From NCBI RefSeq assembly GCF_000276665.1, contig NW_004955425.1, forward strand, positions 25,543,196-25,607,195: DNA of 64,000 bases, given 5' to 3'. The position numbers and the translations under genes were made by a program. Within the stretch, counting starts at the first letter, position 1. The number at the start of each line of letters is the position of its first letter. Shown one piece after another: positions 47,217 through 47,487 of this stretch. Origin of the DNA: Chinchilla lanigera. Taxonomy: Eukaryota > Chordata > Mammalia > Rodentia > Chinchillidae. The notes beneath the pieces are model-generated. The model saw nothing but the letters and a program-made list of their open reading frames with translations. It ran no database searches and was not told the origin of the DNA.

Positions 47217-47487
47217 AAATAAAACAACTGGGATCAATAAGAGGAATGCCAGAGGGGAAAGCAGGCTTCATTCAGCTGCCAAAAGGGGAGATTTATCCCT
47301 AGTTAAAGTTCTGGGGGGCTGGGGATTTAGCTCAGCGGCAAAAGCGCCTGCCTGGCAAACTCAAGGTCGTGAGTTCAGTTCCCGGTACCGGAGAAAAACC
47401 AAAAAAAAATAATAATAATAATAAAACAAATAAAAATAAAAAAGTTCTGATAGAATCTGGAGCAGATGTGAATCTAAAAGAGTGCAG
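47217..47487 (+). pseudogene. ANKRD31: ANKRD31 ankyrin exon disrupted by ID SINE
   Basis: First exon of the second ankyrin block, with a TTTGCAG acceptor and phase 2 in. Before the insert it reads [20 protein letters not shown] then LSLVKVL, a good ankyrin repeat. An ID SINE then interrupts it, and after the insert the same repeat resumes with [12 protein letters not shown]. The 136-nt insertion (SINE plus one target copy) shifts the frame, and the continued frame stops at TAA (47410-47412) in the SINE tail. Even without the SINE the exon ends in phase 2 at both possible donors (47487 and 47499), whereas the next exon needs phase 1. The donor lies in a 12-nt imperfect tandem (TGCAGGTTTCAG, then TGCAGGTTTAGG). 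Confidence 0.85.
47314..47440 (+). repeat. ID SINE inside ANKRD31 exon
   Basis: Near-consensus ID (GGGGCTGGGGATTTAGCTC head, GGTCGTGAGTTC B box) with an AATAATAA/AATAAA-rich tail. The target duplication AAAGTTCTG lies at 47305-47313 and 47441-47449. The host exon reads continuously across it when one copy is ignored. A consensus-like sequence suggests a recent insertion. Confidence 0.95.

What the first reader, a model, noticed from the sequence alone, without database searches (positions are those of the whole stretch)
47305..47449. ID SINE inserted inside a coding ankyrin exon of ANKRD31
The exon reads as a good ankyrin repeat up to KVL, is interrupted by a near-consensus ID element, and resumes with the second half of the same repeat after the duplicated AAAGTTCTG. 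The 136-nt net gain shifts the frame and the SINE tail supplies a TAA at 47410-47412. In mouse, ANKRD31 matters for meiotic break control, so an exonic SINE that removes the second ankyrin block and C-terminus in one rodent lineage would be striking. Family function is known; gene loss is inference.
Basis: partly seen in the sequence, partly recalled or inferred. Interest (0 to 1): 0.88.

Follow-up and report, generated by a model that had tools for sequence, protein, structure and literature searches.

The report
Jumping gene breaks a meiosis gene
In one unnamed rodent genome a small mobile element has landed inside a coding exon of what looks like the meiosis gene ANKRD31, and the exon carries a second frame-breaking change, so this locus probably cannot make the normal full-length protein, although the rest of the gene looks healthy and may still be used in another form.

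Summary
An ID SINE (47314-47440) sits in an ankyrin-coding exon (47217-47487), flanked by a perfect 9-nt duplication at a TT|AAAG site; it adds 136 nt and an in-frame TAA at 47410-47412. It belongs to the five least diverged of 17 aligned ID copies, 3 of 86 bases from their consensus. (1) The exon's 3' end is also 2 nt out of phase, and its donor lies in a 12-nt tandem duplication. (2) Skipping this exon alone gives a stop after five codons; the only frame-keeping bypass I found also skips the exon before it. (3) The ten other exons placed have no stop in 861 codons; if the gene had decayed since the insertion, that clean state has probability 0.002-0.06 taking the SINE's changes at face value, up to 0.4 if they were inherited. 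So loss is recent, or the gene survives without this exon, or the allele is polymorphic, duplicated or mis-assembled. In mouse, a frameshift replacing the last 21 residues mimics a null. No orthologous DNA, own-genome search or RNA was available; the gene name rests on a human sequence recalled from memory.

The parts
912..1054 (+). exon of ankyrin block 1
   Evidence: tblastn 82% to recalled human ANKRD31; acceptor at 99.9th percentile of AGs in the window; GT after 1054 (one search tested a donor one base off and found none)
29542..29686 (+). next exon, end of ankyrin block 1
   Evidence: tblastn 75.5%; acceptor and donor present
39490..39542 (+). small linker exon
   Evidence: best-scoring match in a scan of 29687-40378, flanked by TTTACAG and GTATAT
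40379..41858 (+). large linker exon, open throughout, ends in phase 1
   Evidence: tblastn E 4e-174, 58% identity; donor CAG|GTATTA (86th percentile) in the phase the next exon needs
42346..42587 (+). exon preceding the SINE-bearing exon; 3' boundary not placed, end given is where similarity ends
   Evidence: tblastn 70%; no GT of the needed phase between 42521 and the in-frame TAA at 42609-42611
47217..47487 (+). first exon of ankyrin block 2, carrying the SINE; also 2 nt short at its 3' end
47305..47313 (+). target-site duplication, left copy AAAGTTCTG
47314..47440 (+). ID SINE: body 47314-47400, A-rich tail to 47440
   Evidence: 21 blastn hits; 3 of 86 differences from young-subfamily consensus
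47410..47412 (+). TAA in the frame of the exon's 5' half, 75 nt before the exon's end
47441..47449 (+). target-site duplication, right copy
47481..47503 (+). two copies of AGTGCAGGTTT, 12 nt apart, spanning the exon's donor site
   Evidence: donors at 57th and 65th percentile
48313..48455 (+). second exon of ankyrin block 2, open, needs phase 1 at its start
   Evidence: tblastn 80%; acceptor 99.8th, donor 99.9th percentile
59508..59670 (+). third exon of ankyrin block 2, open but with unusual residues (LL to PP) and a weak acceptor
   Evidence: tblastn 65%; acceptor 47th percentile, donor 98th
61197..61312 (+). exon of the C-terminal half, open
   Evidence: tblastn 59.5%; donor 99.3rd percentile
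63137..63224 (+). exon of the C-terminal half, open
   Evidence: tblastn 73%; donor 98.6th percentile
63975..64000 (+). start of the next exon, cut by the window's end
   Evidence: 8 of 9 residues of a short match (E 7.3 alone); ATAG|AACAAT in the right phase

Best explanation
A recent L1-driven insertion of an ID SINE interrupted the first exon of the second ankyrin block of ANKRD31 in this rodent lineage (the insertion is shown; the gene name, the L1 machinery and the lineage-wide state are inferred). The same exon is also out of phase with the next exon (shown by phase arithmetic). Transcripts that include the exon end at the SINE's TAA, 75 nt before the exon's end and ahead of further introns, so nonsense-mediated decay is expected (inferred); skipping the exon alone also gives an early stop (shown). 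So the normal full-length protein with its REC114-binding C-terminus is no longer made from this locus (inferred), and the gene is freshly broken in the sequenced genome. I cannot say whether the SINE or the 2-nt change came first.
For: Perfect duplication at TT|AAAG; youngest ID group in the window; in-frame TAA at 47410-47412 and stop after LDTTS on skipping; 135 nt without the insert where 3n+2 is needed, and no GT that restores phase before a stop. In mouse a frameshift that replaces the last 21 residues mimics a null (PMC10168363, passages). ANKRD31 was sixth of nine nominal, uncorrected hits in a screen for genes that covary with PRDM9 across vertebrates, outside the five that were followed up (PMC8892340, one passage): a hint that it can be lost.
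Against: 0 stops in 861 codons of the other 10 exons; if decaying since the insertion the probability of no lesion there is 0.002-0.064 with 2 or 3 SINE substitutions (0.04-0.40 with 0 or 1), which asks for a very young insertion. The frame defects lie in one 135-nt exon, as exon-specific relaxation would predict. Spermatogenesis fails in Ankrd31-deficient mice, so loss would need a different meiosis. No second assembly, individual or RNA; an intact second copy was not excluded.
Confidence: 0.5

Rival explanations
1. The gene is alive but has dropped this exon: the exon at 42346 and the SINE-bearing exon are skipped together, joining the large exon (end phase 1) to 48313 (needs phase 1). The protein loses some 125 residues or more, with the first repeat of ankyrin block 2, but keeps its C-terminus. 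The SINE then landed in an exon already out of use.
For: Large exon ends in phase 1 and 48313 needs phase 1; no right-phase donor could be placed for the 42346 exon; no lesion in the other exons; the frame defects cluster in one exon; the 59508 exon of block 2 shows 5 negative-BLOSUM62 changes in 37 residues against 1 in 48 and 3 in 38 in block 1.
Against: The 5' half of the SINE exon (28 of 32 residues, 1 harsh change) and the 42346 exon (70%) are about as well conserved as the rest, so both were in use until recently. The 48313 exon, which this reading keeps, has 3 harsh changes in 48. No transcript evidence. One in three random exon pairs would be frame-neutral by chance (arithmetic).
Confidence: 0.25
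2. The window is a broken duplicate of ANKRD31 and an intact copy lies elsewhere.
For: Not excluded: the own-genome search was unreachable in 6 of 6 tries.
Against: Introns are kept, so it is no processed copy. None of 5 exons tested has a second copy within the window (the one extra hit is to the block-1 repeat). A duplicate would have to span some 63 kb.
Confidence: 0.1
3. The insertion is real but polymorphic, or the exon is an assembly or haplotype error.
For: Young element; otherwise open gene.
Against: The retroposition hallmarks are perfect, which an artefact would not give; a second frame defect sits in the same exon.
Confidence: 0.15

Closest known systems
ID SINE (rodent tRNA-derived, BC1-related retroposon; family traits recalled)
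   Same: Similar body, A-rich tail, short perfect target-site duplication, many copies in the window
   Different: A subfamily with CAAAAGCG and a GAGAAAAACC 3' end; subfamily name and host species not identified here
ANKRD31 (vertebrate-specific REC114 partner in meiotic break control; PMC10168363, passages)
   Same: Two ankyrin blocks separated by a long linker; exon-by-exon similarity to recalled human protein
   Different: Second block broken by a SINE and by a 2-nt phase defect; N-terminal part and last exons lie outside the window
Unitary pseudogene / lineage-specific gene loss (e.g. mole-rat losses in PMC8851862; listing and start of abstract seen, no occurrence of ANKRD31)
   Same: Frame-breaking changes in a gene that keeps its exon-intron layout
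   Different: Only one exon is demonstrably broken; loss of function and absence of another copy are not shown

Membership tests
ID SINE | similarity to other ID copies | tested here: met
   21 blastn hits in the window including itself, 77.6-100% identity
ID SINE | tRNA-derived body | tested here: inconclusive
   Rfam tRNA passes its cut-off for two related copies (52937-53006, 45646-45717) but not for this one; ARAGORN found none in the window
ID SINE | target-site duplication at an L1-type site and A-rich tail | tested here: met
   9 of 9 identical, TT|AAAG, tail to 47440
ANKRD31 | sequence similarity along the protein | tested here: met
   10 collinear matches (nine exons) of 18 tblastn rows to a recalled human protein, the other 8 being ankyrin cross-matches; one of the ten, the exon's 3' half, is only E 0.16; the reference is from memory
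ANKRD31 | two ankyrin domains | tested here: met
   Pfam Ank in both blocks; two-domain layout stated in PMC10168363
ANKRD31 | C-terminal REC114-binding region | not testable with these tools
   beyond the window's end
unitary pseudogene | disabling change in the coding sequence | tested here: met
   SINE with TAA; phase defect
unitary pseudogene | no intact copy in the genome | not testable with these tools
   own-genome search unreachable
unitary pseudogene | relaxed constraint across the gene | tested here: inconclusive
   no stop in 861 codons elsewhere; harsh changes in the 59508 exon; no close relative to compare

The most novel reading that the evidence does not exclude
A rodent lineage in which ANKRD31, critical for X-Y recombination in mouse, has been lost or rebuilt without the first repeat of its second ankyrin block, so that meiotic break placement on the sex chromosomes must work differently there.
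Probability: 0.4. Interest if true: 0.8.

Novelty: new member of a known kind. Interest (0 to 1): 0.55.

Why it matters
If fixed, it gives a natural test of whether ANKRD31, or its second ankyrin block, is dispensable: mice in which a frameshift replaces the last 21 residues behave like nulls (PMC10168363). A species without a full-length protein might lack the usual pseudoautosomal recombination, as the achiasmate Mus mattheyi does (PMC8471055, passages), or make its breaks by another route.

Tried and rejected
That query could not be made, so no ortholog proteins were had. A scan of viral contigs with the large exon gave 3 pattern matches and no relative. A PDB search with 38 residues gave 2 hits, E 0.38 and 0.97, not relatives.

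Rejected: processed copy (introns present); rescue by a cryptic splice site in the SINE exon (judged by eye); chance origin of the 9-nt repeat (it bounds the element exactly). Pfam on the 59508 exon alone gave no ankyrin match, but nor did the 29542 exon alone; for the whole block 2, Ank_2 scored 66.3 bits with X at the breaks against 106.7 for the recalled human block, which mixes the effect of the breaks with decay. Host identity was left open: 5 of 5 hits to a B2 fragment fall on ID copies, and a 7SL-derived fragment has 7 hits, which suggests a non-muroid rodent; a beaver paper lists many ID elements (PMC5335264, passages), which proves nothing. Two searches on ID families gave little (1 and 2 papers), and one on SINE-inactivated genes listed 12 of 21 papers, none read.

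The odds did not need changing.

Full report
What was checked. AAAGTTCTG occurs at 47305-47313 and 47441-47449, 9 of 9 identical and 136 apart, and is preceded by TT, so the target site is TT|AAAG, the usual kind for L1-type nicking (recalled). Between the copies lies a sense-strand ID element with an A-rich tail. With 84 nt of its body as query, blastn found 21 ID-like places in the window, itself included. I aligned 17 of the 21; the four I left out (35624-35674, 37809-37878, 49647-49686, 59336-59394) are partial matches. Five of the 17, chosen by eye, form a young group. The copy in question differs from their consensus at 3 of 86 positions; the other four differ at 2, 3, 4 and 5, and the remaining twelve at 10 to 26. 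One of the three differences is shared with the copy at 592 and may come from the source gene; another removes a CpG.

The host gene. No annotated relative could be fetched, so I compared the window with parts of human ANKRD31 recalled from memory (1239 residues). Of 18 tblastn rows, ten are collinear on the + strand from 908-1057 to 63137-63235 and cover nine exons; the other eight are cross-matches between ankyrin repeats. The best is 522 query residues at 58% identity in one open frame (E 4e-174); the weakest is the 14-residue 3' half of the SINE exon (E 0.16). A short piece at the window's end and one small exon found by scan were added. The first 28 residues of the query found nothing in 1-911 and presumably lie upstream. 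That a recalled sequence matches so well makes the name ANKRD31 safe in my view, but it is not a database result. Pfam finds ankyrin repeats in both blocks. PMC10168363 (passages) gives the mouse protein two ankyrin domains and a C-terminal region that wraps around REC114; that part lies beyond the window.

The exon. It runs from 47217 (CAG|AAAT) to 47487 (CAG|GTTTCA). Read without the insert, the flanks give [44 protein letters not shown]; with the insert the frame runs into the SINE and stops at TAA 47410-47412, 75 nt before the exon's end. By the usual 50-55-nt rule (recalled) such transcripts should undergo nonsense-mediated decay. If the exon alone is skipped, the next exon is read out of frame and stops after LDTTS.

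A second lesion. The exon starts by completing a codon that already has two bases, and the exon at 48313 starts by completing one that has one, as does its block-1 counterpart at 912. That needs 3n+2 bases, 137 by comparison with recalled human; without the SINE there are 135. Of the 8 GT dinucleotides in 47440-47560, the five from 47481 to 47505 give the wrong phase in both frames; 47443 and 47467 give phase 1 in the 5' frame but lie past the TAA; 47522 gives phase 1 in the 3' frame but lies past a stop at 47513-47515 and has the lowest score. The shortfall sits where the ankyrin repeat should run on as D-x-x-G before WTPLH (consensus recalled). So the SINE is not the only frame-breaking change, and which came first is unknown.

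The rest of the gene. Ten other exons could be placed: 2599 nt, 861 codons, no stop, AG before all ten and GT after eight; the last is cut by the window and the 42346 exon has no placed donor (one search was the same with one exon end 2 nt too far). The large exon matches human in one unbroken frame. Two points speak the other way. For the 42346 exon I found no donor of the needed phase between 42521 and its in-frame TAA at 42609. The exon at 59508 has a weak acceptor (47th percentile) and five negative-BLOSUM62 changes in 37 residues, among them LL to PP and D to G in ALDEA; the block-1 exons have 1 in 48 and 3 in 38, the 48313 exon 3 in 48, the SINE exon's 5' half 1 in 32.

Dating. If the locus had drifted free since the SINE landed, the chance of no stop, frameshift or lost splice dinucleotide in those ten exons is 0.002 to 0.064 with 2 or 3 substitutions in the SINE, and 0.04 to 0.40 if only 0 or 1 arose after insertion (CpG sites six-fold or flat; indel-to-substitution ratio 0.05 or 0.1). 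The rates are assumptions, and the test counts the unresolved 42346 donor as unbroken. It leans towards a very young event or continued use of the rest of the gene, and does not decide.

Ways it could work. First, fresh loss: no full-length product. In mouse, a frameshift replacing the last 21 residues mimics a null and breaks are no longer targeted to the pseudoautosomal regions (PMC10168363). Second, bypass: the large exon ends in phase 1 at 41858 and 48313 needs phase 1, so leaving out both the 42346 exon and the SINE exon keeps frame and spares the C-terminus. Third, a duplicate, or a polymorphic or mis-assembled allele. I give these about 0.5, 0.25 and 0.25.

Literature. A search for ANKRD31 listed 40 of 146 papers. 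Searches combining it with pseudogene, gene loss and rodent and with rodent names and SINE listed 20 of 553 and 10 of 460 papers; none of the 30 listed contains ANKRD31. A search with PRDM9, ZCWPW1, vertebrates and losses gave three papers; PMC8892340 names ANKRD31 once, as a nominal hit in a screen for genes that covary with PRDM9, and does not contain 'rodent', 'Castor' or 'squirrel' in its main text (one passage seen). I saw no report of this insertion in these listings and passages, which are a small part of the literature; of the two 2019 Mol Cell papers on ANKRD31, one is not held and the other I know only from reference lists.

Verdict. The structural claim is confirmed and strengthened by a second lesion in the same exon. 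Gene loss is the leading but unproven reading.

Noticed in passing
8592-10538, minus strand: Intronless-looking copy of condensin-II subunit NCAPH2: Pfam CNDH2 N, mid and C domains in one frame, interrupted by one stop at 8994-8996; probably a processed pseudogene.
   Followed up: partly
34425-34718, plus strand: Weak match to the integrase zinc-binding domain (E 0.00034, below Pfam's cut-off); perhaps an old endogenous retrovirus fragment.
   Followed up: no
59508-59670: Third exon of ankyrin block 2 has LL to PP and other harsh changes and a weak acceptor, hinting that constraint on block 2 is relaxed beyond the SINE exon.
   Followed up: partly
42346-42611: Exon before the SINE exon is open and 70% similar to recalled human, but no donor of the needed phase was found near its end; possible further lesion.
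   Followed up: partly
52932-53114: Two ID copies head to tail about 100 nt apart, more diverged than the one in the exon.
   Followed up: no
41859-41902: Protein similarity to recalled human ANKRD31 continues past the in-phase donor at 41858; perhaps an alternative exon end.
   Followed up: no
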